Of a stretch of 64,000 bases of DNA, positions 1 through 64,000 are shown one piece after another. Both the position numbers and the translations under genes were made by a program. Below the pieces are notes generated by a model. It searched no databases. It was not told where the DNA came from and saw nothing but the letters and a program-made list of their open reading frames with translations. This DNA is from an uncultured Bacteroidales bacterium (GTDB taxonomy: Bacteria > Bacteroidota > Bacteroidia > Bacteroidales > UBA932), in NCBI GenBank assembly GCA_944323505.1, contig CALUST010000011.1, positions 81,106 through 145,105 of the forward strand. Reading direction: 5' to 3'. Positions within the stretch are counted from its first letter, which is position 1. Each line of letters opens with the position of its first letter.

Positions 1-639
1 GGACTTTATCTGAGAAAAACACTGGACAACAAGGCAGAGATTTCCGTGTGGAAGATTACCGAGACGGAGGACGAACTGATAAAACTGAGTTCCACCCCGA
101 CCGACGAGATGGAGGAGATCTCCCTCATAAGGAACGAGAACCTGCGAAAACAGAGGCTTGCTGTCAGGGCACTGCTGAACGAGGTGTTCGAGGACAAGGT
201 GTATCTGAGCCACCACGACAACGGCAAGCCGTTCCTCGAGAACTGCATAACCAACATCAGCATCACACATACAGACAGATATGTGGCCATCATCACCCAT
301 CAGGAGGAAGACCTCGGTATCGACATGGAGTGCATCGACAGGGACTTCACATCCGTCAGGGAAAAGGCTCTTTCGGAAGAGGAGAAGGAGGATCTTGACG
401 ATGATGACGAGAGGCTCAATGAGCAGCTCGCCCTCTATTGGTGCGCCAAGGAGGCCATCTTCAAGAGGATGTCCCAGAACAAGGTGGACTTCTCGGAGCA
501 GATCCACGTGGAGCATTTCAACCCCAAGGACGAAGGGGAACTCGAAGCCACATTCATACACAAGGACGGCTACGAGGAGGAATTCGAACTGGAATATATC
601 ACTTTCGACAGGCACGTCCTGGTGTGGGTCGTAGGCTGA
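1..639 (+). CDS. 4'-phosphopantetheinyl transferase superfamily protein (5' partial)
   Basis: Sfp-like phosphopantetheinyl transferase, which moves the 4'-phosphopantetheine arm of CoA onto a Ser of acyl or peptidyl carrier proteins. The family signature is visible as DLGIDMECI (the G-I-D-x-E magnesium/CoA motif) followed by YWCAKEAIFK, the W-x-x-K-E-A-x-x-K motif. The frame is open to base 1 and the first in-window GTG (46) sits inside recognisable family sequence (LRKTLDN...VWKITETE), so the true start lies upstream. The 3' end is complete and is followed by an AT-rich inverted repeat that may end the transcript. The carrier-protein partner is not in the window. Confidence 0.88.
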   Translation, partial: GLYLRKTLDNKAEISVWKITETEDELIKLSSTPTDEMEEISLIRNENLRKQRLAVRALLNEVFEDKVYLSHHDNGKPFLENCITNISITHTDRYVAIITHQEEDLGIDMECIDRDFTSVREKALSEEEKEDLDDDDERLNEQLALYWCAKEAIFKRMSQNKVDFSEQIHVEHFNPKDEGELEATFIHKDGYEEEFELEYITFDRHVLVWVVG

Positions 640-5112: not shown

Positions 5113-6303
5113 TCATTTCTTCCTGAGCCAGAGTTCAGGATTCTGCGGCGACTGGCCCTGCCATATTTGGAAATGCAGTCTCGTCTCCCCGTTGATCGTA
5201 TCGACAGTGCCTATCCGCTGCCCTGTCTTCACCTTGTCACCGGCCTTGACATCGGCAGTCTGCAACTTGCAATAGAATGAGAAATAATTGCCATGCTGCA
5301 CAAGCACACATATATTATATCCGGGCATCACGACAATCTGCTTGACAACGCCGTCAAAGACAGCACTGACGGCCGTCCCCGGTGACAATGCCACGTCTAT
5401 ACCATTGTTGAACGGCATCTTGAGCCTCGTGAACACAGGATGATACCGCTGACCGAATCCCTCGACGACAGGCCCGGCAGCCGGCCACGGCAGCCGCCCC
5501 TTGTTCCTGGAGAACTCGGATGCCAGTTTGTAGTCAATCTGCGGCTTGGCATCGCCTTTGGCGGCCGCAGCCTTCATGGCCTCCTCCACCAGACGCTCTA
5601 TCTCCTTGTTCAAGGCATCTACCTGCTTTTTCTTGGCAGCCAGCTGGCGCTGATACCTGGTCTTGTCCTTTTTCAGCTTGCTGACCATCTGCTCAGACTT
5701 GCTTTCATCAGCCTGGAGCGAGGCAAGTTCCGCCTTGCGCTGCAGCCTCACTTTCTCTGTCTCGGACTTGAGCTGCTGCAACCTTGACTTTTCTGCAGAC
5801 AGTTCAGCCTTGGCCTCGTCTATCGCCTCCGCCTGTCTCCTGATCTCGCCTGCAAGATTCTTGAAATAGCCGTATCTTCTGAACGCCTGCCCGAGATTGT
5901 CGCTTGCAAGAATGTACATATACCATATCTTGGCATCCCTGTTCTTGTATGCGCTCCGCACAAGCCTCCCGTAATGCGCGACGAGGGTGTCTATCCGTTC
6001 CTGGAGCCTGTTTATCTTCTTCTGGGTCGCGTAGATACCGTCAGAATACACCCGTATCTGCCGCTCTGCAGCAGATACAAGTTCCTTCCTGTTTGATATC
6101 TGCTTGCGTATGAGCGTCAGGTCCGAGAGCAGGTTGCGGCTCCTGGCCACATTGTCGGAAATCTGCCTGTCGAGAATCGCGATCTCCTTTTCCAGAGACG
6201 CCACTCTTGACTCATAAGCCGCCTTGTCCTGTGCATTCGCGGCACAAACCGCCAGAAATCCGCACAGGAAGACCGGGATTATTCTATACAGTAGATTACT
6301 CAT
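5113..6303 (-). CDS. EnvC-like murein hydrolase activator (coiled coil + degenerate M23/LytM)
   Basis: A signal peptide (cleavage near VCAANAQ) is followed by a long coiled coil over about residues 25-245, rich in Lys, Glu, Arg and Gln heptads. A LytM/M23 domain covers about residues 285-396. Active M23 enzymes carry H-x-x-x-D and H-x-H zinc ligands. Here the first His is Asn299 (N-N-G-I-D) and the second His of H-x-H is Gln379 (LHFQIW). Loss of the metal site is what is known for EnvC-type activators of cell-wall amidases, so regulation of cell separation is the likely role. The start overlaps the upstream TPR gene stop as ATGA. Length is 396 aa. Confidence 0.87.
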   Translation of the reverse strand: MSNLLYRIIPVFLCGFLAVCAANAQDKAAYESRVASLEKEIAILDRQISDNVARSRNLLSDLTLIRKQISNRKELVSAAERQIRVYSDGIYATQKKINRLQERIDTLVAHYGRLVRSAYKNRDAKIWYMYILASDNLGQAFRRYGYFKNLAGEIRRQAEAIDEAKAELSAEKSRLQQLKSETEKVRLQRKAELASLQADESKSEQMVSKLKKDKTRYQRQLAAKKKQVDALNKEIERLVEEAMKAAAAKGDAKPQIDYKLASEFSRNKGRLPWPAAGPVVEGFGQRYHPVFTRLKMPFNNGIDVALSPGTAVSAVFDGVVKQIVVMPGYNICVLVQHGNYFSFYCKLQTADVKAGDKVKTGQRIGTVDTINGETRLHFQIWQGQSPQNPELWLRKK

Positions 6304-8018
6304 TTCTCCATTTCTGACTTTCTCCGCATTATCTTCTCGTCAAGCCCTTCAATCTCCCCGTTATTCTTGCTCTTCGCCTGAGCCCAATAGACAAAGGCCA
6401 GATCATATTCCTTCAGGGCATACAGCACCTCTGCATAATGGTCAAGAATCACGACGCTGTCCTTTCCTCCATACAGCATCGCATGCTTGAAGAATGGCTT
6501 TGCCTCCAAAGCCTTGCCCTGCAGATAGAGAATCCAGCCGAAAGTATCGAGATACGTAGGGTTGTCCGGCTCCTTCTCCACCGTGATCTTGCTCATCGCA
6601 TAGGCCTTGTTGAGCCTCTTGCCCTCCATGCTGAGGAAATATGCATAGTTGTTGAGCACAGGGACATACGTCGGATCTATCTTCAATGCCGCATCGTATG
6701 CCTTATAGGCCTTGCTGTTCTCCCCCAGGATATGATACATGTCTCCCATCGTAGTATATGCGTTCAATGTCCTCAGGCTGTCGCCCCGGCTCACGGCAAG
6801 GACAGTATCGCAGATGCCAAGGACCTTGCGGTATTCCCCGAGATTGTAGTCGGCAAGGCTCGCCATCTCAAGAAATCCCGGCTCGGACGGGAACCTGCGG
6901 AATGCCCGCCTCCCTTCGACAGACAATTCTTCCCACTCATTGTTGTACATCAGCAGCTCGATATAGTTGGCCACGGCGGAGACACTATTAGGATACAGGT
7001 CCTTGTTTCTCCCGAACATGGCCTTGGCCTCGGCAGCACGCGAGGTACCATAATAATATATGCCGGCTGCCATAAGCAGGGAACTGTCCTGCGGATGCAT
7101 GGCAAGGCAATCTGTCACCAGCGAATCAATCTCCCCCGAGAACGTCCTCAGGAATACCGGGTCGGATCTCCGGAAAAGGCTGGTCAGATATTCCCCTTTC
7201 CCCTCAGGAGACACCGAGTCCGAAAGGATGAAACCGCGGACGGAAGAGAAATAGTCATTGTATCTCCTCGTGACACGGAACACCTCAGCCTTGCCCAGCA
7301 TGGCAGGGGCATAGTCCGGGGCGACGGCCAGCGCCTCGTCATACGACTTGAGCGCAAGCGAGTCATTGTACATCGACATCTGGTAATCCCCTATCATAGA
7401 CAGCACCTGCGGAGAAGACGCCTCGTCATTGAACTCCAGCAGAGCCGAATACGCCTCCTCATACCGGCCCTCCCTCCTGAGCAGGTCAAACCTCGTCAGC
7501 ACGGTCGGCTCGCTCTTGCCGAACACCGTATCTATCTGGTCAAGAGTCTCAAGGGCCTTGTCCGTCTGCCCCTGGGACTGGTACAGTTCTATGAGATTGT
7601 AATACAGTTCGCTTTTTTTCGGGAAGTCCTCCAGAAGTTCCTCAAGCATCGCCACCGTTAGTTCCTTGCGGTCGGTGGCGGAATAAAGCATCGCGAGACG
7701 GTAGCGGTACCAGAAATTGGACGGGTCGAGCCCGACAGCCGTCTCAAGTTCCTCAGCCGCCTCATCCATATTGCCGAGGCAGAACTCCGTCATCCCGAGA
7801 TAGAAATGTGCGGCATCGTTGTCAGGCGCCTCGGACACAATAGCCCCCAGCATCTGCGAAGCCTTGGAGAAATCCCTTTCATTGTATTTGGCTACAGCCG
7901 TAATTATCTTGTTCTCAATGAGTCTGTCATCTTTCTCCTGAGCATCGGATACCCCCTGCCAGCAAACTGACATGAAAGACCAGACACATATTATGGCTAT
8001 AAGTCTCATTTTCCTCAT
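6300..8018 (-). CDS. Secreted tetratricopeptide-repeat protein
   Basis: Periplasmic or surface-facing TPR protein. An N-terminal signal peptide (MRKMRLIAIICVWSF, cleavage near VSDAQ) is followed by TPR units throughout, for example AAHFYLGMTEFCLGNMDEAAE and AYKAYDAALKIDPTYVPVLN. The start at 8018 is preferred because the reading frame upstream (to 8060) gives a non-signal sequence and overlaps the promoter region. It is coupled to the EnvC-like gene by a 4-bp ATGA overlap, which suggests a shared envelope or divisome role. The precise partner is not evident. Length is about 572 aa. Confidence 0.85.
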   Translation of the reverse strand: MRKMRLIAIICVWSFMSVCWQGVSDAQEKDDRLIENKIITAVAKYNERDFSKASQMLGAIVSEAPDNDAAHFYLGMTEFCLGNMDEAAEELETAVGLDPSNFWYRYRLAMLYSATDRKELTVAMLEELLEDFPKKSELYYNLIELYQSQGQTDKALETLDQIDTVFGKSEPTVLTRFDLLRREGRYEEAYSALLEFNDEASSPQVLSMIGDYQMSMYNDSLALKSYDEALAVAPDYAPAMLGKAEVFRVTRRYNDYFSSVRGFILSDSVSPEGKGEYLTSLFRRSDPVFLRTFSGEIDSLVTDCLAMHPQDSSLLMAAGIYYYGTSRAAEAKAMFGRNKDLYPNSVSAVANYIELLMYNNEWEELSVEGRRAFRRFPSEPGFLEMASLADYNLGEYRKVLGICDTVLAVSRGDSLRTLNAYTTMGDMYHILGENSKAYKAYDAALKIDPTYVPVLNNYAYFLSMEGKRLNKAYAMSKITVEKEPDNPTYLDTFGWILYLQGKALEAKPFFKHAMLYGGKDSVVILDHYAEVLYALKEYDLAFVYWAQAKSKNNGEIEGLDEKIMRRKSEMEK

Positions 8019-8054
8019 AAAATCCGGAATTTTAGATACAACGATCCGGACGAA

Positions 8055-8086
8055 TTGCAAAAATAGTACAAAATCTTGTATATTTG
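8055..8086 (+). promoter_or_regulatory. Promoter of the sigma/anti-sigma pair
   Basis: TTG at 8055-8057 and TATATTTG at 8079-8086, 21 bp apart, fit the housekeeping Bacteroidetes consensus. Transcription would start near 8093, about 100 nt before the sigma gene. Confidence 0.55.
8058..8065 (-). promoter_or_regulatory. Putative -7 box for the TPR-EnvC-epimerase operon
   Basis: Read on the minus strand this is TATTTTTG, matching TAnnTTTG. No good -33 element is seen. It overlaps the plus-strand promoter of the sigma gene, so the two divergent units may compete. Confidence 0.4.
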
Positions 8087-8193
8087 CAGGACGCGTCTGA
8101 AAGAATTGTCAGGAAGAATGCAACATTCTGCAATGCGGTTGCATCTTTTATTTCGCGGTAGTGTATAAGAAACCTGTAATTGGAGACTGTACT

Positions 8194-8739
8194 GTGACCG
8201 AAGCCTCGGAGCAAGAACTGATTGATCTGTGCATAAAGGGAGACAGGATAGCTCAGAGGGCTTTATATGACCGGCTGGCTTCCCGTATGTTCCCGTTGTG
8301 CATCAGATATGTCGGGGAGAGGGACACAGCCGAAGACATCCTCCAGGACGGTTTCGTCACACTATTCTCAAGGCTTGACAGTTTCAAGGGGCACGGGTCC
8401 TTTGAAGGCTGGGCGAGAAAGATCTTTGTCAACACTGCACTCATGTACCTGAGGAAGAAAGATGCGCTGAAGATGAGCGACGAGATAGAGACGGCGCGCA
8501 ATCTCAGCACGGACATCACCTCACAGATGCAGAACATCGGTTACAAGGAACTGATGGGACTCATCACATCCCTGCCGCCCGGGTTCAGGACAGTCTTCAA
8601 CATGTATGTCATCGAAGGCTACTCACACAAGGAGATCGCCGACATGCTGAACATAACGGAGACCACATCAAGGACACAGTTGAGCAGGGCAAGGGCATGG
8701 CTGCAGAACAAGATTAAGGAAAACAGTAAAGATGCTTGA
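8194..8739 (+). CDS. ECF-type RNA polymerase sigma factor
   Basis: Sigma-70 family, extracytoplasmic function type, about 181 aa. Region 2 is seen as RALYDRLASRMFPLCIRYVG, ERDTAEDILQDGFVTLF and FEGWARKIFVNTALMYLRK. Region 4 carries a helix-turn-helix (GYSHKEIADMLNITETTSRTQLSRAR). I favour GTG 8194 (TEASEQELIDLCIKGD) because GGAG lies 8 nt upstream and family members start there; GTG 8161 in the same frame is the alternative. The next gene overlaps by 8 bp and encodes a protein with a cytoplasmic tail and a membrane helix, the normal position for an anti-sigma factor. Confidence 0.9.
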   Translation: MTEASEQELIDLCIKGDRIAQRALYDRLASRMFPLCIRYVGERDTAEDILQDGFVTLFSRLDSFKGHGSFEGWARKIFVNTALMYLRKKDALKMSDEIETARNLSTDITSQMQNIGYKELMGLITSLPPGFRTVFNMYVIEGYSHKEIADMLNITETTSRTQLSRARAWLQNKIKENSKDA

Positions 8740-10030
8740 CGACAGACAATTCGACCTGAAGATCCGTTCTATCATGGAAAACGGCGAGGAAGAGGTTCCT
8801 GAGCACATTTGGGATGCGGTACAGGAACGGCTTTCTGTTGCCGGGCACAGGAAGACGCGATTTCCGGTATGGTTGAGAAATACAGGGATAGGAATGGCGG
8901 CAGCCGCTGCGGCTGCTTTCGCCATGGTATTTCTGTGGAGAGCACCTGAAGACAGCACCAATGCACTGACCGCTGAAGTGACAGAAGCGGCAGTCTCGAC
9001 ACCCGGGACCGGCATGACGGGCATCGGCAACGACGCCACACCTGCTGCCGGAGACAAGGCCGACGGCAACGACACCACATCGGAGACCGGCATGACGGGC
9101 ATCGGCAACGACACCACTCAGGAAAGTGTACCGGCGGATGCAATCATCAAGACAAACAAGACAGACATGCGGGAGGCAGTGTCCGCGGATGGCGGACAAA
9201 AGGATGTCCATGTGACGGCAACAGAGGATGCCGCAGCCGGCATAGCGGAGACGGACACCGATTCCGCAGAGCAGGAAGTGGAGCCGGCGGCCACGGAAGA
9301 GAAAGACAGGTTTGATGTCATCAAGGACAACGGGCAGGTCCTGCTGGCGGATGCCGCCTTTGGCCTACCTGAAGAGGATGCCGCAGGAAGACGCCCCGGA
9401 ATATCCCTTGACATCTTCGGCAACGTGCTCAGCAACAATGCCGGCGACAGTCCTGCACGCCGGTCCGCACCGATGTACAGCGCAGGAGAGACCCCAAGAA
9501 ATATGCTATATGAGGAGAACGCCACATCATACGGCATCCCGGTATCGCTGGGAGCCGGTGTAAAGGTGTCCTTCACCCCAAGATGGTCGATAAGCGCGGG
9601 CGTCAACTGGACCATGCTCACCCGGACATTGTCCGGAGTCTATTACGATGCTGACGGCAATGACCATGCAGACCAGGACATCCGCAACAGCCAGCATTAT
9701 ATAGGTATCCCTGTCAATGTCTATTATAATATATTGGACGGAAGACATGTGAATTTCTATGCCTATGCAGGCGGCACAATCGAAAAATGCATCTCCGACA
9801 AATACCTGATAGACTCCCCGGAACAGCCGCTTACATACAAAGGCACAAGCAAGGGCGTCCAATTCTCGGCGAATATCGGTATAGGTGTCGAATTCATGGT
9901 GGCCGAGAGGCTGGGAATCTATATCGACCCGAGCGTGAGATACTACTTTGAAAGCAGCCAGCCGAAAAGCATAAGGACAGTGCAGCCGCTGATGCTGGGA
10001 TTCGAGGCAGGTCTGAGGGTAAGGCTCTGA
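8732..10030 (+). CDS. Dual membrane-spanning anti-sigma factor-like protein (TM + linker + beta-barrel)
   Basis: Residues 1-45 are a charged, probably cytoplasmic segment (VPEHIWDAVQERL, like small anti-sigma domains). A single Ala-rich membrane helix follows at about 47-69. Next is a low-complexity periplasmic linker of Thr, Asp, Ala and Glu (about 70-220), then a C-terminal porin-like beta-barrel (about 225-432) with alternating amphipathic strands and a final aromatic-poor strand ending GLRVRL. This layout matches the dual membrane-spanning anti-sigma factors (Dma with sigma partner Das) described in Bacteroides thetaiotaomicron, where they affect outer-membrane vesicle formation. Family assignment rests on architecture and on the 8-bp overlap with the ECF sigma gene. 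The linker contains a 28-bp direct repeat. Confidence 0.78.
   Translation: MLDDRQFDLKIRSIMENGEEEVPEHIWDAVQERLSVAGHRKTRFPVWLRNTGIGMAAAAAAAFAMVFLWRAPEDSTNALTAEVTEAAVSTPGTGMTGIGNDATPAAGDKADGNDTTSETGMTGIGNDTTQESVPADAIIKTNKTDMREAVSADGGQKDVHVTATEDAAAGIAETDTDSAEQEVEPAATEEKDRFDVIKDNGQVLLADAAFGLPEEDAAGRRPGISLDIFGNVLSNNAGDSPARRSAPMYSAGETPRNMLYEENATSYGIPVSLGAGVKVSFTPRWSISAGVNWTMLTRTLSGVYYDADGNDHADQDIRNSQHYIGIPVNVYYNILDGRHVNFYAYAGGTIEKCISDKYLIDSPEQPLTYKGTSKGVQFSANIGIGVEFMVAERLGIYIDPSVRYYFESSQPKSIRTVQPLMLGFEAGLRVRL
9007..9112 (+). repeat. 28-bp direct repeat in the linker of the anti-sigma-like protein
   Basis: Identical 28-bp copies at 9007-9034 and 9085-9112, offset 78 bp (26 codons), each encode TGMTGIGND. 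In-frame repeats of this kind can change the linker length by recombination or slippage. Confidence 0.8.
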
Positions 10031-10053: not shown

Positions 10054-10803
10054 TCAACCTCCGATTATGCGCCTTGCAAGGACATTCGCCCCTACAAACG
10101 TCCGGAGTTCCTGACAGTCGGTCCCCAAAATAGAATGCCTGTCTCCTTCCCACAATATCCTCCCTTCATAGATGAATTCTATCCTGTCCCCAATCTCAAG
10201 TATTGAGTTCATGTCATGCGTGTTGATGACTGTCGTGATGCCGTACTCCCTGGTGATACCGTGTATGAGCTTGTCAATCAGCCCTGACGTATAAGGGTCA
10301 AGTCCGGAGTTAGGCTCGTCGCAGAAAAGGTACTCGGGATTCATGGCAATGGCCCGCGCTATCCCGACACGCTTCTGCATACCGCCGCTGAGCTCGCTCG
10401 GATACTTGTCATCCGCATTCTTGACATTCACCCTGTCCAGGCAGAATCTCGCCCTCTCCATCTTCTGCTCCATGCTCCAGTCCGTGAAGAAATTCATCGG
10501 GAACATGACATTGCCGAGCACCGTCTCGAAATCAAACAGGGCACTCCCCTGGAACAGTACCCCGATATTCTGCCTCAGGCTCGACTTCTCCTCATAGCCC
10601 ATCTCCGAAAGCCTCTTGCCTCCGTACCATATCTCGCCGGAATCAGGCTCCATGAGCCCTATCAGGTTCTTGAGCAGGACAGTCTTCCCGGAGCCGCTCG
10701 CCCCGATTATCATGTTGCACATCCCGGGACGGAAGTCCGTGCTGATGTCCTTCAGCACATTGAAGTCCCCGAAACTCTTGCTGAGGTGCTCTACTTTTAT
10801 CAT
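10054..10803 (-). CDS. MlaF-type ABC transporter ATP-binding protein
   Basis: ATPase of a phospholipid/organic solvent ABC transporter (Mla-like). The Walker A GASGSGKT is at residues 34-41, the signature LSGGMQKR is present, and Walker B is YLFCDEPNSGLDP; the LSGGMQKRVGIARAIA and EPNSGLDP stretches are characteristic of MlaF. At 249 aa it is of normal length. It lies 9 bp after the MlaE-type permease and ends 23 bp from the convergent anti-sigma-like gene. No MCE-domain MlaD gene is next to it, so the substrate-binding partner must lie elsewhere. Confidence 0.9.
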   Translation of the reverse strand: MIKVEHLSKSFGDFNVLKDISTDFRPGMCNMIIGASGSGKTVLLKNLIGLMEPDSGEIWYGGKRLSEMGYEEKSSLRQNIGVLFQGSALFDFETVLGNVMFPMNFFTDWSMEQKMERARFCLDRVNVKNADDKYPSELSGGMQKRVGIARAIAMNPEYLFCDEPNSGLDPYTSGLIDKLIHGITREYGITTVINTHDMNSILEIGDRIEFIYEGRILWEGDRHSILGTDCQELRTFVGANVLARRIIGG

Positions 10804-10812
10804 GGCCTTGCT

Positions 10813-11559
10813 CTAATACAACATCAATTGCGTCACTATCAGGTCAAACAGCAGGATGAGGATGCTGGTGACCACTATCGACCTTGTGCTGGAAGCCCCT
10901 ACACCGAGAGAGCCGCCGTCTGCATAATAACCGTTATAGGCGGAGATGGATGAGATGAGGAAGCAGAACAGTGACATCTTGAACCCGCTGTAGAATACAT
11001 AGAAGCCGTTATAGGCATACTTGATGCCCGAAATATACTTCGCTGCAGGTATTATGTCCGTCATCTCCACCACGCACCATCCTCCAAGCAGCCCCAATGC
11101 GAAACTGAACAGCATGAGCAGCGGGCTGAGGAAAGTGGCTGACATGACCTTCGGCAGGACGAGAAAGCCTGCGGAATTGACTCCCATCATGTCCATCGCA
11201 TCAATCTGGCCGGAAATCCTCATGCTCCCGATCTCGGAGGCGATGTTCGAGCCCATCTTGCCGGCAAGGATGAGCGCCACCACAGTGGAGCAGAACTCCA
11301 GCACAAGAGTCTCCCTCACCATATATCCGACAAGCATCCTGTCCAGGACCGGATTGGACATGTTGGAAGCCGTCTGGATGACCAGCACTCCCCCGATGAA
11401 GACCGATATGACGCCGACTATCACGATGGAGGACAATATCAGCTTGTCAGTCTCCAGCACGAACTGCCTCCAGAAGATGCCCCACTTCTCCGGCCTGCGG
11501 AACACCATCTTCAGAAAAAGGCAGTATCTGCCTATCGGTTCTATAAATCTTTTTATCAT
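10813..11559 (-). CDS. MlaE-type ABC transporter permease
   Basis: Inner-membrane permease of the MlaE family, 248 aa, with five or six hydrophobic segments. The family core is seen as LILAGKMGSNIASEIGSMRISGQIDAMDMMGVN. Paired with the MlaF-type ATPase it should move phospholipids between inner and outer membranes. It is the first gene of a two-gene minus-strand unit with a putative -7 box at 11603-11610. Confidence 0.92.
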   Translation of the reverse strand: MIKRFIEPIGRYCLFLKMVFRRPEKWGIFWRQFVLETDKLILSSIVIVGVISVFIGGVLVIQTASNMSNPVLDRMLVGYMVRETLVLEFCSTVVALILAGKMGSNIASEIGSMRISGQIDAMDMMGVNSAGFLVLPKVMSATFLSPLLMLFSFALGLLGGWCVVEMTDIIPAAKYISGIKYAYNGFYVFYSGFKMSLFCFLISSISAYNGYYADGGSLGVGASSTRSIVVTSILILLFDLIVTQLMLY

Positions 11560-15725: not shown

Positions 15726-15820
15726 TTGCAGCCAATGCTGTTTTAATAATCATGGGACTGCATCAGGTATCTATGACAATTATCAACCTGAAGACGCCGG
15801 AGACGGCTGACAGATGACAA

Positions 15821-15867
15821 CTCATGCCTCCTGGTACCAGGATACGGTATCAGGAGGATTATATGAG
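15821..15867 (+). promoter_or_regulatory. Leader hairpin upstream of susC
   Basis: CCTCCTGGTACC (15827-15838) pairs with GGTATCAGGAGG (15846-15857) over a 7-nt loop, with one G-U pair. CTCAT/ATGAG (15821-15825/15863-15867) extends it below an internal loop. It lies about 57 nt before the susC start and has no T tail, so a post-transcriptional control element is more likely than a terminator. No known RNA family is recognised. Confidence 0.5.
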
Positions 15868-15924
15868 CCTGCACGAAGTCAGAGCGGCTCTTCAAAACAT
15901 ATTTTTTGTATAATTCAATATTTT

Positions 15925-18900
15925 ATGTTCAAAAAACTACTCATTGTGCTGACGGTTGCACTATGTGCAGGTTTCGAGGCCTTGGCCCAGGATCACAAAG
16001 TGACCGGTACAGTAACTGACCAGACCGGACTGCCCGTGATCGGAGCGGTCATCCAGGTTGTCGGAGGCACATCCGGGACAACAACAGACGTGGATGGAAC
16101 ATACTCCATCGAAGTCCCTGCCGATGGCACACTTTCGGTATCCATCATCGGATACAAACAGCAGGAAATGCCTGTTAACGGACGTGCGACAATAAATTTT
16201 GTCCTCGAAGAAGACACACAGCTGCTCGATGAAGTCATCGTCGTGGCATTCGGTACCGCCAAGAAAGAGGCGTTCACCGGTTCCGCTACAGTCATCAAGT
16301 CTGATGACATAGCCAAGACACAGCAATCCAACGTTGCCCAGTCTCTGGCAGGTAAGGTGGCCGGTGTGCAGATCACCAACTCATCCGGACAGCCGGGTTC
16401 AAGCCCGACAATCCGAATCAGGGGTTTCAGTTCCCTCAACGCAGGTAACGACCCTCTGTGGATTGTGGACGGTATGCCGTATTCCGGTGACCTCAACAAC
16501 ATCAATCCGAGCGATATCGAGAGCATGACAGTCCTCAAGGACGCCGCATCCAACGCCCTCTATGGAGCGCGTGGTGCGAACGGAGTCGTGATGATTACCA
16601 CCAAGAAGGCCAAATCCAGGGAGGCTGTCATCAATTTTGACGCGAAGTGGGGTGTGAACTCCCGTGCAGCCCAGGACTATGAGTACATCACCAGCCCGGC
16701 ACAGTTCTACGAGACTCATTACACTGCCCTCAAGAACTATTATCTCGATTCGGACATGAGTGAGACAGAGGCACACAACAATGCGAACCTCAACCTGACA
16801 AGGCCGGCAAGTGAAGGAGGTCTCGGCTACCAGGTATACACCGTACCTGAGGGACAGCAGTTCATCGGAATCAACGGTAAGGTCAATCCTGCAGCCACCC
16901 TCGGACGCAAGGTCGTATATGACGGAGAAGAATACTATATCCAGCCTGACAACTGGATTGACGAGGCTTTCCGCAACTCTTTCCGTCATGAATACAACCT
17001 CAGCATAGGAGGCTCCTCTGAGAAGACATCTGTATATGCATCTCTCGGCTACCTCGGCAACCAGGGTATCGTTGACAACTCCGACATGGAGAGGATCACA
17101 GCCCGCGTCAAAGTGGACTACGATGCAAAGAGCTGGCTGAAGATGGGTATCAACGCCACATACACAAGGTTCAAATACAATCAGATCGATGACAGCGGTG
17201 CGAGCGGTAGTTCAGGAAACATATTTGCCTACACCTCCACTATAGGACCTATCTACCCTCTGTACATGAGAGGCGGTGACGGGCAGTTCCTCTACACCGA
17301 AGAAGGCATCCAGAGATATGACTACGGTAACTATGCAGGCATGCAGCGTGCTCTGTTCACCGACAGCAACGCCGTATCGGAGAACCAGTTGAACACCCAG
17401 TCTTCAGAAGGAAACGCCTTCAACGGCACAGGATATTTCGACATCACATTCCTCAAGGACTTCAAGTTCACCATCAACGCCGGTGTATCCCTTGACGAGA
17501 CCAGGTCCACGACCATCAAGAATCCGTACTTCGGACAATTCGCCAGCGAGGAGGGACTCATCTCCAAGGGGCATTCACGCCAGCTGGACTTCAACTCACA
17601 GCAGATTCTCAACTACAACAAGAGAATCATGAGGCATAACATCAACGTGATGATCGGTCACGAATACTACAGTTCGACAGGATACGCCCTGTCCGGTACC
17701 AAGAACCACATGCTCACACAGGACAATGACGAACTTGCTGGAGCCATCATCGACGGCCAGCAGGCGACCTCATACAGGAGCGAGTACTTCAACGAAGGTT
17801 ACTTCGCACGTGTGATGTATGACTGGGCAGACAAGTACTTCTTCTCCGCATCATTCCGTCGAGACGCATCATCGAGGTTCCACCGCGACCACCGCTGGGG
17901 TAACTTCTGGTCCGTCGGAGGTGCATGGAACATCACATCCGAGCCGTTCATGGAGAGCACAAGAGACTGGCTTGACAACCTCAAGTTCAAAGCATCCATC
18001 GGTTCCCAGGGTAACGACAACATCGGTAACTTCCGTTACATCGACACATACCTTATCCAGAACGCCAACGGTGAGGTGTCAACAGTGTTCAACGGCAAAG
18101 GTAGCGAGACCATCACATGGGAGACCAACTCCAACTTCAACACAGGTTTCGAGTTCGGCTTCCTCCAGGGCAAGATATTCGGAGGCATCGAGTACTTCTA
18201 CCGTAAGACTACGGACATGCTCTTCTCGTTCCCTGTAGCACCTTCAATGGGTTACTCTTCATACTATGCCAACGTCGGCGACATGCGCAACAGCGGTATC
18301 GAGATCGAACTCAACTTCACGCCTATCCGTACCGACAGGCTCCAGTGGGACATCAATCTCAACATGACGCACCTGCGCAACAAGATCACAATGCTCCCTG
18401 AGGAGCGCCGCACCAAGGAAGTCGAAGGCTACTACGGATATGTCAGCGGGACCAACTTCTACGGTGAAGATCTCCCGATGTACACATTCTACATGAAGAA
18501 ATACGCCGGAGTGAATGAGGAAGGTCTGGCAATGTGGTATATGGATGAACTTGACGCAAATGACCAGCCTACCGGAAGACGCGTCACCACCACAGAATAC
18601 GAGCAGGCCACAGACTACCTCTGCGGAAACCCTATTCCTGACCTGTATGGAGGATTCGGGACAAGCCTCAACTTCTACGGATTTGACTTCAGCATAGCAT
18701 TCACCTACCAGATAGGCGGACTTGCCTACGACTCAGGCTATGCGTCATCAATGTACTCACCGGCCAACAGAAGCACCGGTATGAACTGGCACAAGGACAT
18801 ACTGAACGCGTGGAGCCCTACAAACACGTCTTCAGACATCCCTCGCCTCCAGTATGAGGACCAGAACCAGAATGCGACTTCTGACAGATTCCTCATGGAT

Positions 18901-19128
18901 GCCAGCTACCTCAACCTCCAGAATATCAACTTCGGTTATACGATTCCTGCAAAATGGACCAGGAAATGCAAGATTGAAAGACTCCGCGTCTATCTCGCCT
19001 GCGAGAATGTGTACTACTGGTCAAGGAGAAAGGGATTCGACCCAAGATACTCCTACAGCGGAGCCACGACCCAGGCCGGCTACTCTCCTGTAAGGACAAT
19101 ATCCGGAGGTATAAATATCCAGTTCTAA
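15925..19128 (+). CDS. SusC/RagA-family TonB-dependent outer-membrane transporter
   Basis: 1067-aa TonB-dependent transporter. A signal peptide (MFKKLLIVLTVALCAGFEALAQ, cleaved after ALAQ) precedes a carboxypeptidase-regulatory-like beta-sandwich (VTGTVTDQTGLPVIGAVI). The plug domain follows, with the SusC signature QSLAGKVAGVQI, IRIRGFSS and DPLWIVDGMPY. The 22-strand barrel ends in GGINIQF, the usual C-terminus. ATG 15925 is chosen because the signal peptide begins there; the frame extends upstream to 15814 without a sensible N-terminus. The SusD partner follows after 27 bp. With a protease in the locus, imported oligopeptides are more likely than glycans, as for the RagAB pair. Confidence 0.96.
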   Translation: MFKKLLIVLTVALCAGFEALAQDHKVTGTVTDQTGLPVIGAVIQVVGGTSGTTTDVDGTYSIEVPADGTLSVSIIGYKQQEMPVNGRATINFVLEEDTQLLDEVIVVAFGTAKKEAFTGSATVIKSDDIAKTQQSNVAQSLAGKVAGVQITNSSGQPGSSPTIRIRGFSSLNAGNDPLWIVDGMPYSGDLNNINPSDIESMTVLKDAASNALYGARGANGVVMITTKKAKSREAVINFDAKWGVNSRAAQDYEYITSPAQFYETHYTALKNYYLDSDMSETEAHNNANLNLTRPASEGGLGYQVYTVPEGQQFIGINGKVNPAATLGRKVVYDGEEYYIQPDNWIDEAFRNSFRHEYNLSIGGSSEKTSVYASLGYLGNQGIVDNSDMERITARVKVDYDAKSWLKMGINATYTRFKYNQIDDSGASGSSGNIFAYTSTIGPIYPLYMRGGDGQFLYTEEGIQRYDYGNYAGMQRALFTDSNAVSENQLNTQSSEGNAFNGTGYFDITFLKDFKFTINAGVSLDETRSTTIKNPYFGQFASEEGLISKGHSRQLDFNSQQILNYNKRIMRHNINVMIGHEYYSSTGYALSGTKNHMLTQDNDELAGAIIDGQQATSYRSEYFNEGYFARVMYDWADKYFFSASFRRDASSRFHRDHRWGNFWSVGGAWNITSEPFMESTRDWLDNLKFKASIGSQGNDNIGNFRYIDTYLIQNANGEVSTVFNGKGSETITWETNSNFNTGFEFGFLQGKIFGGIEYFYRKTTDMLFSFPVAPSMGYSSYYANVGDMRNSGIEIELNFTPIRTDRLQWDINLNMTHLRNKITMLPEERRTKEVEGYYGYVSGTNFYGEDLPMYTFYMKKYAGVNEEGLAMWYMDELDANDQPTGRRVTTTEYEQATDYLCGNPIPDLYGGFGTSLNFYGFDFSIAFTYQIGGLAYDSGYASSMYSPANRSTGMNWHKDILNAWSPTNTSSDIPRLQYEDQNQNATSDRFLMDASYLNLQNINFGYTIPAKWTRKCKIERLRVYLACENVYYWSRRKGFDPRYSYSGATTQAGYSPVRTISGGINIQF

Positions 19129-19155
19129 TAATTTAAATGAATCTGCATATATAAC

Positions 19156-20817
19156 ATGAAGAATATTTTGAAAATAACGGCTGTTGCAGCAGCATCTGTA
19201 CTGACTGTCTGCTGTATCCAGGAGGCTACCCCGACGGATGTCGCGACAAAAGACCAGGTCTCTCTGGAAACCACCATCCGTGGTATACCGGCAGCCCTCG
19301 TACAGGCAGGCTCCACAGGCTACGCAAACCAGGGTGCGGCATGGGACTTCGCCCTTCCGGCAATACACCTTGCAACCGAATCCATGACAGGAGACGTGAT
19401 AGTGACGGGAAACATAGGATATGACTGGTTCACCCAGTGGGGGACAAACGTATCCCTCGGCTCCGACTATGCCGTAGGCGCCCTGACATGGGACAACTAC
19501 TACACCTGGATAATGATGGCCAACAGTGTCATCAGCCAGATTGACGCATCTGACCTCAGCAGTCTTGACGAGACTGAAAGATCATATCTCGGCTTTGCAT
19601 ATACATACCGTGCAATGTTCTACTTCGACCTTGTAAGGCTCTATGAATGCAAGGATGTGAAAGGGGTCGACGGCTACACTGTGCCGGAGAGCATCAAGGG
19701 ACTCGGAGTGCCGATCGTACTTCCGGGAACTACCGAGGCCCAGGCAAAGAACAATCCGCGTGCTACGGTCGACGAGGTATATGACACTGTCATATTCCCT
19801 GACCTTGACATGGCAGAGGAACTCCTCTCCACATTCACGGCCCCGGACAAATACACCATCAGCCTGGGACTCGTATACGGCATGAAGGCCCGTGCATGGC
19901 TTGAGCGCGGAACCGCCTATGCAGAGAAAGGTGACGATGCAGCATCAGTGCAGGCATTCAAAGATGCTGCCGAATATGCAAGGCTCGCCATCACCACAAG
20001 CGGAAGGACTCCGCTCACTCAGGACCAGTGGGAGGACCCTACAAACGGATTCAACAATGCCAACTCCAACAACGCCTGGATCTGGGGACTGTCCCTCCCG
20101 AGCGAGAGCGTATCGAACCTGTTCTGCTTCACTGCCCACATGGCTTGCGAGAACGAATGGTCCGAATACCACACAGGACGAGGCATCAACCGCAACACGT
20201 ACAACAGTATAAACATGTACGACTTCCGCCGTCATTCATGGCTTGATCCTGAGCGCAACAGCTACGACTACAAGAGCTGCCGCGACGATGCCGACGAGTA
20301 CTTTGCAAACCAGCTTGCCGACTATGCCAACATCAAGTTCCGCCCGGCTCAGGGTGCGTATGAGAACTACGCTACCGGAGGTGCCGCAGACCACTGCTGC
20401 ATGAGGGTCGAGGAGATGTACTTCATCGAGGCGGAGGCAGTTGCCCAGGCCGGAGACCTCAACGAGGGCATCAGGCTCCTCAATGAGTTCATGACCAACT
20501 ACAGGATGACCAACGGAGTGCAATATGACTGTACTGCAAGGGCTACAACCCTTCAGAGCTTCCTCAACGAAATGATGCTCCAGAAGAGAATCGAATTCTG
20601 GGGAGAAGGCATCGTGATGTTTGACATGAAACGTCTGAACATGTCTGTCAAGAGAGGATACGTAGGAACAAATGCCCCTGCATCCTACAGACTGAATGTG
20701 GACGGACGCGCCCCATACTGGAACATAGTCATCACACGCGGTGAGACACAGAACAACCCTGTCATTGCGACACAGAACAATCCGGATCCGTCAGGTCTTG
20801 TGGATCTGTGGAAATAG
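19156..20817 (+). CDS. SusD/RagB-family nutrient-binding lipoprotein
   Basis: 553-aa surface lipoprotein that forms the lid of the SusC transporter. The lipobox is LTVCC (Cys19 or Cys20). The family pattern YRAMFYFDLVRLYE in the helical TPR-like region and RVEEMYFIEAEAVAQAGD near the end are typical. The C-terminal MLQKRIEFWGEGIVMFDMKRLN is also characteristic of RagB/SusD. Immediate linkage to susC is standard. No residue pattern indicates the ligand. Confidence 0.95.
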   Translation: MKNILKITAVAAASVLTVCCIQEATPTDVATKDQVSLETTIRGIPAALVQAGSTGYANQGAAWDFALPAIHLATESMTGDVIVTGNIGYDWFTQWGTNVSLGSDYAVGALTWDNYYTWIMMANSVISQIDASDLSSLDETERSYLGFAYTYRAMFYFDLVRLYECKDVKGVDGYTVPESIKGLGVPIVLPGTTEAQAKNNPRATVDEVYDTVIFPDLDMAEELLSTFTAPDKYTISLGLVYGMKARAWLERGTAYAEKGDDAASVQAFKDAAEYARLAITTSGRTPLTQDQWEDPTNGFNNANSNNAWIWGLSLPSESVSNLFCFTAHMACENEWSEYHTGRGINRNTYNSINMYDFRRHSWLDPERNSYDYKSCRDDADEYFANQLADYANIKFRPAQGAYENYATGGAADHCCMRVEEMYFIEAEAVAQAGDLNEGIRLLNEFMTNYRMTNGVQYDCTARATTLQSFLNEMMLQKRIEFWGEGIVMFDMKRLNMSVKRGYVGTNAPASYRLNVDGRAPYWNIVITRGETQNNPVIATQNNPDPSGLVDLWK

Positions 20818-20841
20818 TAAGGACATTAAAACCTATTCAAA

Positions 20842-23334
20842 ATGAGTATCGTGAAGACTCTTAAATATATTCTGCCTGTCATTGCGACGGCAATAATGGC
20901 TGCAGGATGTGCCGAGGAGGAACTGTACACACCTGGTCTGTCTGATACAGAGAACAACTACGGTGTCTACTTCCCGAGCCAGACATCCCCGACGCAGCTC
21001 GACCTCGACCCATCCGATGAGACTGAAGTGACATACACAGTCCGCAGGGAAAGAGGAGAAGAAGCCATCACAGTACCTGTGGTGGTGGAAGCCAGTGAAG
21101 AAGGCATATTCGACATCGACCCTATCGTATTCGGACCGGGCGAGAGCGAGACAGAATTCACTGTATCATTCCCTACTGCCGAAAGAGGCGTGGAATATAC
21201 CTGCAACATCCGTATAGAGGACACCAGATACATCTCCCTGTACGGAACCCACTCGACAACACTGTCCCTGTCCCTCATCCGTGCAGGATGGCTCCCGGTA
21301 ACAGGACCTAACGGCGAGACAAAAGGAAAATGGCGTGACAACGTCATAGGAAACATCTACTCTATCGATGTCGACGGCTACAACCCTTACCCTGAAGTAG
21401 AAGTCGAAATCTATGAGCGTGAAGACCTGCCGGGCTTCTACAGGATGAAAGTCTATGGGGATGCGCTGATGCAGGCTCTCGTGCCTGGACGCCAGCTCTC
21501 ATATACAGGCCGTAACCTGTGGACGACCATCGATGCCAGCGACCCTAATAAGGTCTACATACCTTATCAGTCGATAGGGATCACCCTCGTGGCAGAGGAC
21601 GGAGAGATGAGAATCGCCTCAAATGTATCCGAGAACTTCTCAATGGACGAATCCACAAGCCAGTACGGAACTCTTAAGGACGGGGTCATCACATTCCCGC
21701 AGCAGAGCGTGATGTGCGAACTGAGCAACAACAGCGGCTCATTCTTCTACTGCAACATGCAGGGAATGCTCCGCATCATGATGCCGGGTGTGGCAGAGAA
21801 GGATTACTCTGCAAGTCTCACCAGCAATGAATGCAAGGACGGTGTAGTGGAAGTCTCAGCAACTATCGGAGCGGATGTCGAGAAATTCGGCTACAGCATT
21901 TTCGAAGGCTCGCTTGACGAAGGTGCAGCAAGCCTCCAGGCACAGACCCTCGATGAGAGCAGGGATTTCGACGGCACTATTGACGGGACTACTGCAGAAA
22001 GCCCTGTAACCATCAAGATAGAGAATCTTGAAAAGACAGGCAAGTATACAATCATCGGCTGTGCATACAACGATGAGGATGCAATGCAGACCTACGCATA
22101 CGCCAACTTCGGATACGTGAAGAAAGGCGAGAGCAAGCCTATAATACTGACAATCGGTCTTGAGGCTACTGACGAATATGCAGGACAGGGCATCAACACT
22201 GACAATTCAGCCAAGTTCTATGCCTACGGTTCGGAAATCGAATCCCTGACCTACGGTCTGTTCAGGACGAGCCGTCTTGAGGGCGTAGACAAGGAAGCCG
22301 CCCTTGACAGCCAGGGGACCAAGTTCACTTCCGAAGAACTCGAGAAACTGAACGACGGTCATTTCAGCGTAATGCTCAAAGGTCTCAACGGAGACAGCGA
22401 ATACACTCTCCTCGTGAGGGCATCGAACGGATATGTCACAGAGACCAAGGAGGCCAAAATCAAGACGACCGGTGTATTCGACCCTGCAATGGAGATATTC
22501 TACTATGACGAATTCCTCCCTAAAGACAAGCAGCCTTCTGTTGAAGAACTGATAAATACCGAATGGGACTACTACGCCGTGAACTATATGGATGATGAGG
22601 CCGTGCGCAGGAAAATCGGCACTGTCACCATGACAAAGAATGAGGAGATGTCTGCCGAATCCGATGTCACATTCGTGAACATAAAGGGTATGTCAGGTCT
22701 TGAATTCGAGTCAGGCGGAGAACTTATCGGAGCATACATGCCTGATGCATCAATGTTCGCCGACTATGTGGGCGCCCTCGGAATCTATGTCCAGACAGAC
22801 CTCACAAGAGGTATCTACCAGGGTGAGGAGACGACCCTCGGATTCATCCCTGATGACTTCTCCGGCATCTACACCCAGGGCTACTGTATGTTCATGGGAG
22901 CTGTCCAGGACGGATATCTGTACTGTGTAGGCTCACCGGTGGCTGAAGAGCAGGGCTACAACTTCATGTTCCTGTTCACCGGTACTCCGAACACAATATT
23001 CAGCCTCCTGTCTGAAATGATGCTTGTAAATCCGGATAAGGATGTGCACAATACTTCAGGTGCGGCACTTTCAAAGATTGCAGAGATAAAGAAGGCTGCC
23101 CTCAGCGGCTTCGCTCCTCGCAACTTCGTCGAGCGCCCTGAATTCAGCAGAATGCCTGAAAACTGGTACGCTTCAGACTCTGAGAGGATGCCTGTAAACC
23201 TCGTGTACGACCCTATGCCTGCTTCTGCACCGGCTCTGACCAAAGCCAAGGCAGACATCCAGGTTGTCCCTGGCAAGACAGGATCCAACACCGGAGCCAT
23301 CGTAAGGACAGGCATTGAAGCCAAGACACTGTAA
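20842..23334 (+). CDS. SusE/F-position surface lipoprotein with beta-sandwich repeats
   Basis: 830-aa lipoprotein; Cys of AAGC ends the signal peptide. An N-terminal domain (about residues 35-150, VTYTVRRERGEEAITVPVVVEAS) resembles Calx-beta/DUF4843-like sandwich domains. Two central FN3-like segments (FGYSIFEGS...GKYTIIGCAYNDE and LTYGLFRTS...EYTLLVRASNG) follow. The C-terminal third, after about residue 550, is unassigned. In many SusCD loci the gene after susD encodes a surface ligand-binding lipoprotein, which is the best guess here. No catalytic motif is seen. Confidence 0.75.
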   Translation: MSIVKTLKYILPVIATAIMAAGCAEEELYTPGLSDTENNYGVYFPSQTSPTQLDLDPSDETEVTYTVRRERGEEAITVPVVVEASEEGIFDIDPIVFGPGESETEFTVSFPTAERGVEYTCNIRIEDTRYISLYGTHSTTLSLSLIRAGWLPVTGPNGETKGKWRDNVIGNIYSIDVDGYNPYPEVEVEIYEREDLPGFYRMKVYGDALMQALVPGRQLSYTGRNLWTTIDASDPNKVYIPYQSIGITLVAEDGEMRIASNVSENFSMDESTSQYGTLKDGVITFPQQSVMCELSNNSGSFFYCNMQGMLRIMMPGVAEKDYSASLTSNECKDGVVEVSATIGADVEKFGYSIFEGSLDEGAASLQAQTLDESRDFDGTIDGTTAESPVTIKIENLEKTGKYTIIGCAYNDEDAMQTYAYANFGYVKKGESKPIILTIGLEATDEYAGQGINTDNSAKFYAYGSEIESLTYGLFRTSRLEGVDKEAALDSQGTKFTSEELEKLNDGHFSVMLKGLNGDSEYTLLVRASNGYVTETKEAKIKTTGVFDPAMEIFYYDEFLPKDKQPSVEELINTEWDYYAVNYMDDEAVRRKIGTVTMTKNEEMSAESDVTFVNIKGMSGLEFESGGELIGAYMPDASMFADYVGALGIYVQTDLTRGIYQGEETTLGFIPDDFSGIYTQGYCMFMGAVQDGYLYCVGSPVAEEQGYNFMFLFTGTPNTIFSLLSEMMLVNPDKDVHNTSGAALSKIAEIKKAALSGFAPRNFVERPEFSRMPENWYASDSERMPVNLVYDPMPASAPALTKAKADIQVVPGKTGSNTGAIVRTGIEAKTL

Positions 23335-23359
23335 TGAATAATTATCCAACGAAAATAAT

Positions 23360-54136: not shown

Positions 54137-54162
54137 GCGGATAAGTATTAAAGTAATATTGT

Positions 54163-54170
54163 TATTTTTG
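54163..54170 (+). promoter_or_regulatory. Putative -7 box of the alpha-2-macroglobulin/PBP1C operon
   Basis: TATTTTTG matches TAnnTTTG and is 28 bp before the start codon; the -33 region is not convincing. Confidence 0.45.
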
Positions 54171-54197
54171 AAGAAATGTTCAATTTATTCTGACACA

Positions 54198-59717: not shown

Positions 59718-59738
59718 ACCTGTCACGCGGGACTGCAG

Positions 59739-62126: not shown

Positions 62127-64000
<1,874 letters not shown>

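What the first reader, a model, noticed from the sequence alone, without database searches (positions are those of the whole stretch)
8194..10030. ECF sigma factor overlapping a probable dual membrane-spanning anti-sigma factor
The second protein has a cytoplasmic tail, one membrane helix (about residues 47-69), a long disordered linker and a C-terminal outer-membrane barrel, and its gene overlaps the sigma gene by 8 bp. This is the layout of the Dma/Das systems of Bacteroides thetaiotaomicron, which let the cell sense outer-membrane state without a regulated proteolysis cascade. The regulon of this copy is unknown.
Basis: partly seen in the sequence, partly recalled or inferred. Interest (0 to 1): 0.7.

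Follow-up and report, generated by a model that had tools for sequence, protein, structure and literature searches.

The report
Two-membrane stress sensor with RNA arm
A bacterium related to common gut Bacteroides carries a gene switch whose control protein appears to reach from the cell interior through both membranes, and the switch seems to turn on itself, a tiny RNA and a tiny membrane peptide, much as the outer-membrane stress response of E. coli does.

Summary
An ECF sigma gene (8194-8739) overlaps by 8 bp a 432-aa anti-sigma gene (8732-10030). AlphaFold2 gives two N-terminal helices, a membrane helix at 47-69, a disordered linker and a confident barrel. A profile from this clade alone recognises Bacteroidales Reo/Dma-type proteins through N-terminus and barrel, so Dma-family layout and membership hold; ECF21 assignment of the sigma and sigma binding were not tested. 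It is not an ortholog of EcfO/Das1- or Das2-type pairs: it forms its own clade, found in 48 of 61 sampled genomes of its genus. New here: the sigma genes of the clade share a two-box promoter (28 of 28 congeneric loci at <=3 mismatches; 0 of 41 other Dma loci). The same promoter precedes an RNA gene with a nearly invariant 21-nt 5' end and a covarying terminator hairpin (49 of 61 genomes), and, in six genomes including this one, a 29-aa membrane peptide. I propose a Dma-type envelope sigma with a noncoding arm, functionally like sigmaE with MicA/RybB. Expression, sigma dependence, signal and RNA targets are inferred. No RNA arm of a Dma system turned up in the held library, though one putative RNA with an ECF-type promoter is listed for Flavobacterium psychrophilum.

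The parts
8119..8146 (+). Predicted autoregulatory promoter, TGCAAC-N15-TGCATCT, 0 mismatches to the clade motif
   Evidence: 28 of 28 congeneric orthologous loci (window included) at <=3 mismatches; shuffled regions have a median best of 6
8194..8739 (+). ECF sigma factor gene (Das-type), GTG start
   Evidence: Pfam sigma regions 2 and 4; own clade among Dma-linked sigma factors
8732..10030 (+). [quoted passage not shown] overlaps the sigma gene by 8 bp
8732..8869 (+). Residues 1-46: predicted cytoplasmic, sigma-binding part with two helices
   Evidence: 38% mean pairwise identity against 17% for the linker, 27 proteins
8870..8938 (+). Residues 47-69: inner-membrane helix
8939..9505 (+). Residues 70-258: disordered acidic periplasmic linker
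   Evidence: 130-211 aa in 27 aligned proteins, 15% mean identity to the window, net charge -24 in the window (residues 71-255)
9506..10021 (+). Residues 259-430: outer-membrane-type beta-barrel, read as eight strands
6300..8060 (-). Divergent neighbour: TPR-repeat protein gene
   Evidence: homolog near the pair in 27 of 27 congeneric loci
5113..6303 (-). Divergent neighbour: EnvC-like M23 peptidase gene
   Evidence: homolog near the pair in 27 of 27 congeneric loci

Best explanation
The pair is a Dma-type envelope sensor. The anti-sigma holds the ECF sigma at the cytoplasmic face of the inner membrane (inferred) and is tethered by a disordered linker to its own barrel in the outer membrane (domains predicted). 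A disturbance of the outer membrane or of barrel assembly changes the tethered protein and frees the sigma (inferred). Free sigma reads TGMAACDTT-N12-NGCATCT promoters (inferred from footprinting) at its own operon, at a gene for an RNA of roughly 60 nt elsewhere in the genome (G000:C32, promoter 8674-8701), and in this and five related genomes at a 29-aa membrane-peptide gene. The RNA has a nearly invariant 21-nt 5' end and an intrinsic terminator and most likely represses envelope-protein mRNAs by base pairing (inferred by analogy with sigmaE sRNAs).
For: Domain layout and family. Conserved pair and neighbourhood. Own clade: (0.975 for the genus group, 0.987 with one locus of another family). 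Promoter at 28 of 28 congeneric orthologs with <=3 mismatches and at 0 of 41 other Dma loci. This genome, <=2 mismatches: 10 matches, reversed control 0. Genus scan, <=1 mismatch: 151 matches against 15 for the reversed control in 61 genomes. RNA element, found by its 21-mer alone: 49 of 61 genus genomes, reversed control 0. All 52 fetched RNA loci carry both promoter boxes, spacer 15 in 45 and 14 in 7; 50 of 52 at the same distance to the 21-mer. Covariation on 28 of the 52: 83.9% of cells paired against 69.5% in shuffles, 41 cells changed on both sides against 14.8, 0 of 500 shuffles as high; 8 of 8 pairs changed on both sides, reached by 17 of 500 shuffles. Sigma and RNA co-occur: 44 both, 4 sigma only, 5 RNA only, 8 neither of 61, p 1.5e-4; in the 26 best genomes 22, 1, 0, 3, p 0.0015. 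Peptide: 6 of 61 genomes, 6 of 6 with the promoter at <=1 mismatch.
Against: No expression data. The pattern was first read by eye from these sigma loci, so its presence there is partly by construction; the sigma locus itself also lifts the match count of genomes that have the sigma. The RNA promoter of this genome has one mismatch, and its hairpin alone does not beat shuffles (z -1.13; five relatives z -2.5 to -5.1); the terminator scan did not report it. Each consensus pair is broken in 2-8 of 28 sequences. Five genomes have the RNA although no sigma of this clade was found; all are 85% complete or less. Four have the sigma but no RNA, one of them (G019) 91% complete, and a covariance-model search did not find it there. 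G075 has 3 promoter matches but neither sigma nor RNA. In the order sample the reversed 21-mer matched 3 genomes, as against 4 for the real one. No mRNA target was found. Related genomes are not independent, so the p-values are optimistic. Sensing by the barrel and release without proteolysis are untested.
Confidence: 0.72

Rival explanations
1. It is simply the local ortholog of EcfO-Reo / Das1-Dma1 and controls NigD-type lipoproteins; the RNA belongs to another regulator.
For: Same architecture; sigma 44% identical over 174 residues to a B. finegoldii copy that sits beside a nigD-like gene. The upstream regions of that Bacteroides group have a similar two-box site, TGCA[AG][CT]-N14-[TC]GCAT, in 49 of 80 against 2 of 1600 shuffled regions (the 80 are related, and the pattern was read from some of them).
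Against: The tree separates the clades, and the same genome holds a second pair on contig C7 that groups with the EcfO/Das1/Das2 side. This clade's motif is absent (4 or more mismatches) at 41 of 41 other Dma loci, in 6 of which no separate sigma gene was located.
Confidence: 0.1
2. The 21-nt element is not a trans-acting RNA but a conserved DNA site or the leader of whatever gene lies downstream.
For: No expression data; short; several loci are followed by a protease-like ORF within about 100-200 nt, and in this genome an M6 peptidase gene starts about 1.1 kb downstream.
Against: Downstream genes differ between genomes, while each of the 52 loci folds into a hairpin after the 21-mer with a T-rich stretch behind, and the stems covary. 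Upstream, homologs of ribosomal protein L25 and peptidyl-tRNA hydrolase genes are shared by 22 and 23 of 33 loci with enough flank, own locus included, so the element keeps its place.
Confidence: 0.15
3. Sigma is released by regulated proteolysis as in RseA, and the barrel domain is a separate outer-membrane product after cleavage.
For: Long disordered acidic linkers are easy protease targets; nothing tested here excludes cleavage.
Against: N-terminal part and barrel are kept in one reading frame in most family proteins (80 and 82 of 84) although the linker between them is poorly conserved. Published Reo and Dma work describes proteins reaching from cytoplasm to outer membrane (passages).
Confidence: 0.25
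4. The protein is an ordinary outer-membrane barrel with an unusual signal peptide and no sigma-binding role.
For: The helix is alanine-rich and only moderately hydrophobic (best 19-residue mean 1.78); no signal-peptide predictor was run.
Against: 46 conserved residues with two predicted helices precede the helix. The gene follows a sigma gene in the loci examined (30 of 31 by script), and fused sigma-barrel proteins occur in the same genus.
Confidence: 0.04

Closest known systems
Dma1/Das1 and Dma2/Das2 (BT_1558/BT_1559) of Bacteroides thetaiotaomicron
   Same: ECF sigma followed by an anti-sigma with N-terminal binding part, membrane helix, disordered tether and C-terminal barrel (PMC13088901: abstract, introduction, one results section, discussion and passages). 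That Das1/Dma1 are BT_4720/BT_4721 is recalled; PMC10861873 (passage) calls these an ECF sigma and likely anti-sigma
   Different: Separate sigma clade, different promoter motif, RNA and peptide as predicted targets; NigD1 and vesiculation are the reported Dma1 outputs
EcfO-Reo of Phocaeicola vulgatus and Bacteroides fragilis
   Same: Anti-sigma predicted to span periplasm and outer membrane; regulon induced by antibacterial toxins thought to cause envelope stress (PMC9308784 and PMC13114119, passages)
   Different: Not the same clade; the P. vulgatus mutant had 15 changed genes, and nigD genes belong to the regulon; no RNA in the passages seen
Dma3 (sigma domain fused to the barrel protein; PMC13088901, discussion)
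   Same: Barrel protein of the same family
   Different: Sigma and anti-sigma in one polypeptide; here two overlapping genes
sigmaE noncoding arm: MicA and RybB in Enterobacteria; FoxI and FoxJ in Fusobacterium nucleatum
   Same: Envelope ECF sigma driving small RNAs (PMC11005410: abstract and one section read). A short RNA with a conserved 5' end and terminator is recalled for RybB
   Different: Different phylum, dual-membrane anti-sigma instead of RseA, targets here unknown; RNA sequences were not compared
Rfp11 of Flavobacterium psychrophilum
   Same: Putative regulatory RNA listed with a promoter (motif SM6) that the authors attribute to an ECF sigma; an ECF sigma/anti-sigma pair is in the same list (PMC9723704, section 15 read, passages)
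   Different: SM6 has a CGT box at -10; the responsible sigma is undetermined there; no Dma protein is mentioned in what I read; sequences not compared
BatR and BTnc353 RNAs of B. thetaiotaomicron
   Same: Bacteroidota small RNAs linked to the cell surface; BTnc353 is predicted to act on BT_4721 (PMC10861873, passages)
   Different: BatR is reported with a -7 promoter box, not an ECF-type site; control runs the other way for BTnc353

Membership tests
Dma (dual membrane-spanning anti-sigma) family | N-terminal cytoplasmic sigma-binding domain | tested here: inconclusive
   Conserved two-helix N-terminus, found in 80 of 84 family proteins by a clade-only profile; binding itself not testable
Dma (dual membrane-spanning anti-sigma) family | Single transmembrane helix | tested here: met
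   Helix 47-69; best hydrophobic window 51-69
Dma (dual membrane-spanning anti-sigma) family | Long disordered tether | tested here: met
   Residues 74-114, 116-247, 250-253 below pLDDT 50
Dma (dual membrane-spanning anti-sigma) family | C-terminal beta-barrel | tested here: met
   Barrel strands, Pfam OMP_b-brl, outer-membrane barrels as top structural hits
Dma (dual membrane-spanning anti-sigma) family | Adjacent cognate ECF sigma gene (except the fused Dma3) | tested here: met
   8-bp overlap; same order in the genus
Dma (dual membrane-spanning anti-sigma) family | Cognate sigma belongs to ECF21 | not tested
   No ECF classifier was run; the tree joins it with Bacteroides Das-type sigma factors against four other ECFs of this genome, support 0.741
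EcfO-Reo / Das1-Dma1 orthologs | Same sigma clade | tested here: not met
   Separate clade, support 0.987; the C7 pair of the same genome groups with the other side
EcfO-Reo / Das1-Dma1 orthologs | nigD gene beside the pair or in the regulon | tested here: inconclusive
   Neighbours are TPR, EnvC-like and MlaFE genes; nigD was not searched genome-wide
Envelope ECF-dependent small RNA (sigmaE type) | Promoter of the ECF sigma at the RNA gene | tested here: inconclusive
   52 of 52 RNA loci carry both boxes, but recognition by this sigma is not shown
Envelope ECF-dependent small RNA (sigmaE type) | Conserved 5' seed and intrinsic terminator | tested here: met
   21-mer: 48 loci with 0, 3 with 1, 1 with 2 mismatches of 52; covarying hairpin; the hairpin of this genome is weak on its own
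Envelope ECF-dependent small RNA (sigmaE type) | Expression and base-pairing with envelope mRNAs | not testable with these tools
   No targets found in limited searches

The most novel reading that the evidence does not exclude
A Bacteroidota envelope-stress sigma, sensed by a two-membrane anti-sigma, has its own noncoding arm: an RNA with a nearly invariant 21-nt 5' end, joined in this and five related genomes by a 29-aa membrane peptide. This would be an independent counterpart of sigmaE with MicA/RybB, with a wholly different sensor.
Probability: 0.7. Interest if true: 0.8.

Novelty: new variant of a known kind. Interest (0 to 1): 0.68.

Why it matters
How Bacteroidota, dominant gut bacteria, monitor their outer membrane is an open question; Dma proteins were described recently and their direct regulons are poorly known. 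Here comparative genomics gives an exact promoter, a short predicted regulon and a small RNA for a further clade of Dma pairs. If right, an ECF-driven RNA arm is tied to a very different kind of membrane sensor. Each link can be tested with standard reporters, deletions and RNA blots.

Tried and rejected
Search of genome contigs with the window protein: 51 pattern matches, none a relative. Plasmid search: 3 records, barrel region only. Rfam: nothing at a gathering score at the RNA locus; four sub-threshold hits to snoRNA/lncRNA families, E 0.38-4.2, treated as chance; only the tRNA in the window. Covariance-model search of 61 genomes: 28 genus genomes at E <= 1.4e-7; matches outside the genus have E 0.008 or worse and are treated as chance; G008, G015, G019 and G031, which have the sigma but no 21-mer, stayed negative (run with stricter filters). 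Antisense targets by 16-mer: 77 matches, 49 of them the RNA gene, 28 others against 103 for the reversed control; the genes at the 28 were not identified. Duplex energies at 43 window gene starts: mean -13.6 against -13.3 for shuffles. MlaFE (10054-11559) was dropped as part of the system: it lies beside the pair only in the window and in 3 of 27 relatives, though some contigs end too early to tell. Weak promoter matches in this genome (2 mismatches, or inside genes) were not counted as regulon; a DUF5722 gene (C14, 65 nt downstream of a site with 2 mismatches) and an lpxD-like gene (C8, 251 nt downstream of a site with 1) are mentioned as uncertain. The terminator scan of L307:1600-1850 found one stem, over the second promoter box, not the proposed terminator. 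Peptide search: two more weak hits (G027 E 0.19, and G000:C6 E 0.23) were not counted. The script stopped at its last line after printing the counts used; the missing count was rerun. On rechecking I found Rfp11 in PMC9723704; it removes any claim to a first ECF-linked RNA in the phylum, and I lowered two interest scores slightly.
Full report
WHAT IS THERE. The sigma gene runs from GTG 8194 (an in-frame GTG lies at 8161) to 8739, and the anti-sigma gene from 8732 to 10030, overlapping by 8 bp. Pfam finds sigma regions 2 and 4 in the first protein and an outer-membrane barrel domain in the second. AlphaFold2, run on the window protein aligned with 49 Reo/Dma-type proteins from public contigs (17-24% identical to it), gives helices 4-16 and 24-36, a helix at 47-69, a linker mostly below pLDDT 50 and nine strand segments between 259 and 430 that I read as eight strands; mean pLDDT is 64.6 and pTM 0.48 because of the linker. 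The top Foldseek hits are outer-membrane barrels, with modest E-values (best 2.4e-4, 4 of 886 at E <= 0.001). The linker varies from 130 to 211 residues in 27 aligned orthologs and is 15% identical to the window's on average, the barrel 45%: the two ends are conserved and the tether is not.

FAMILY. 43 of 61 genomes of genus and order (own included) match the window protein at E <= 0.001. Independently, a search with a Bacteroides sigma gave 80 loci, of which 77 hold a complete Dma-like ORF after it; the other 3 do not show a complete one and lie on short or cut contigs. A profile from 27 proteins of this clade finds the N-terminus in 80 and the barrel in 82 of 84 proteins (those 77, six more from Bacteroides species, and the C7 copy of this genome), with no reversed decoy; the 77 had been picked with a broader profile. 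With the window protein alone BLASTP aligns only the barrel (31% over 162 residues), so the N-terminal relationship rests on profiles. The published Dma layout (PMC13088901, passage; introduction, one results section and discussion read) is met. The PNAS paper that founded the family is not held. Fused sigma-barrel proteins like the published Dma3 occur in the same genus (L164, L174) and in B. faecis (L120, L125).

NOT AN ORTHOLOG OF THE KNOWN PAIRS. In a sigma tree of 72 sequences the window and its congeners form one clade (0.975; 0.987 with a locus of another family), apart from the clade holding the Bacteroides EcfO/Das1-type and second-copy (Das2-like) sigma factors; the second pair of this genome, on contig C7, falls on the latter side. 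Which Bacteroides copy is Das1 or Das2 is inferred from neighbours, not from a name in a record. By identity (55% or more) 48 of 61 sampled genus genomes, own included, have a sigma of this clade; for the 24 genomes G066-G089 that is by identity alone, not by tree. Congeneric orthologs keep a TPR gene and an EnvC-like M23 gene in 27 of 27 loci, divergent in 26 and rearranged in L139.

PROMOTER. I read a two-box motif by eye from the sigma upstream regions and then scored it. With the pattern TGCAACNTT-N12-TGCATCT, 27 of 28 congeneric loci (window included) have <=2 mismatches and the 28th has 3; base-shuffled regions have a median best of 6 and a lowest best of 3-5. The locus from another family (L183) has 5. 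None of 41 other Dma loci has fewer than 4; in 6 of these no separate sigma gene was located. In the window the site at 8119-8146 has 0 mismatches; two other sites have 3, with 1.65 matches expected by chance at that level. Bacteroides EcfO-type loci show a related site with spacer 14 in 49 of 80 upstream regions, against 2 of 1600 shuffled ones, so this promoter type may be old in Dma-linked sigma factors.

REGULON. In this genome, up to 2 mismatches give 10 matches, reversed control 0. With a degenerate pattern and one mismatch, 61 genus genomes give 151 matches against 15 for the reversed pattern. The 48 genomes with the sigma average 2.8 and the other 13 average 1.2 (p 0.0016), part of which is the sigma's own site; of the 8 genomes with neither sigma nor RNA, 7 have no match and G075 has 3. 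I fetched 40 stretches, most of them at matches away from a sigma gene; 25 of them share one element.

THE RNA. Six bases after the promoter comes AGGTTTAGGTTTTAGTACACG, then a hairpin of varying sequence and a T-rich stretch. Searched by the 21-mer alone, with up to 2 mismatches, it is in 49 of 61 genus genomes, 47 at 0 and 2 at 1 mismatch, with no reversed-control match; two of the 49 have a second match at 2 mismatches, which I did not fetch. In a sample of 295 genomes of the order it occurs in 4, all of the same family, including two other genera; the reversed control matches 3 there. The 52 loci fetched (the 49, one more congener, two other genera) all carry TG[AC]AAC and GCATC boxes, spacer 15 in 45 and 14 in 7, at the same distance in 50. 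A script placed the transcript end at 58-99 nt (median 70.5), 61 nt in this genome; by eye the first T-run usually gives about 60 nt. On 28 of the 52, 83.9% of pair cells are standard pairs against 69.5% in shuffles, and 41 cells changed on both sides against 14.8, with 0 of 500 shuffles as high; sliding the partners lowers both. Folding z-scores for 6 of the 52 are -1.13 (this genome) and -2.5 to -5.1. Homologs of the L25 and peptidyl-tRNA hydrolase genes lie upstream in 22 and 23 of 33 loci with enough flank. Sigma and RNA co-occur: 44 both, 4 sigma only, 5 RNA only, 8 neither of 61, p 1.5e-4; in the 26 genomes at least 90% complete and at most 5% contaminated 22, 1, 0, 3, p 0.0015. These tests treat genomes as independent, which they are not. 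Rfam has no match at a gathering score. In this genome the promoter is at G000:C32:8674-8701 and the 21-mer at 8709-8729; neither is in the window.

THE PEPTIDE AND OTHER SITES. A second site in this genome (C5:417-445, minus strand) lies 43 nt before a 29-codon ORF with a hydrophobic C-terminal half (by eye). Homologs at E <= 7.3e-7 occur in 6 of 61 genomes: this one and the five whose sigma scores best against it. All 6 have the promoter with at most one mismatch, 32-43 nt before the ATG; in G081 an upstream ATG at 25 nt would give 33 aa. In two relatives the motif precedes a gene with a PagL (lipid A deacylase) domain, which suits an outer-membrane role but is not shown for this genome.

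HOW IT MOST LIKELY WORKS. Shown by sequence: gene order, domains, motif, RNA element, association. Inferred: the barrel sits in the outer membrane; its state is passed through the tether; sigma is freed and reads the motif; the RNA base-pairs with envelope mRNAs. Published supports: Reo is predicted to reach the outer membrane and its regulon is induced by toxins thought to stress the envelope (PMC9308784, PMC13114119, passages); sigmaE sRNAs repress major envelope proteins in Proteobacteria and Fusobacteriota (PMC11005410, abstract and one section).

NOVELTY. Searches of the held library, and term searches within PMC13088901, PMC12596196, PMC10861873 and PMC7366714, showed no RNA arm of a Dma system; most listed papers were seen as listings only. 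An ECF-linked RNA in the phylum is not wholly new: Rfp11 of Flavobacterium psychrophilum is listed with a promoter motif (SM6, CGT box) attributed to an ECF sigma that was not determined, and Rfp36 with a sigma54 motif (PMC9723704, section 15 and passages). BTnc353 is predicted to act on BT_4721 (PMC10861873, passage), the reverse direction of control. Papers outside the held library may differ.

Noticed in passing
window 9007-9120: A direct repeat inside the linker coding region (two copies of GMTGIGND with flanking Thr/Asp), seen by eye; it looks like a recent duplication that lengthened the tether.
   Followed up: no
G000:C7:54458-56211 (L002, L180): A second sigma/barrel anti-sigma pair in the same genome, closer to the EcfO/Das1 side of the tree and lacking this clade's promoter.
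   Followed up: partly
L164, L174 (same genus): Single proteins with an N-terminal ECF sigma domain and a C-terminal Dma-type barrel, like published Dma3.
   Followed up: partly
L121:98-1920 (B. xylanisolvens XB1A, second copy): Sigma and anti-sigma N-terminus lie in one frame and the barrel in another; error or real change not resolved.
   Followed up: no
L237:537-1895 +, L241:2192-3496 -: In two relatives the promoter motif stands upstream of genes with a PagL lipid A deacylase domain (Pfam E 6e-7 and 2e-8).
   Followed up: partly
window 15814-25378: SusC/SusD-like pair followed by an 830-aa protein without Pfam match and an S8 peptidase.
   Followed up: no
window 54159-62081: Bacterial alpha-2-macroglobulin gene followed by a penicillin-binding protein gene with transglycosylase, transpeptidase and BiPBP_C domains.
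   Followed up: no
window 62127-63830: Predicted 567-aa protein with a collagen-like repeat (Pfam Collagen E 2e-11).
   Followed up: no
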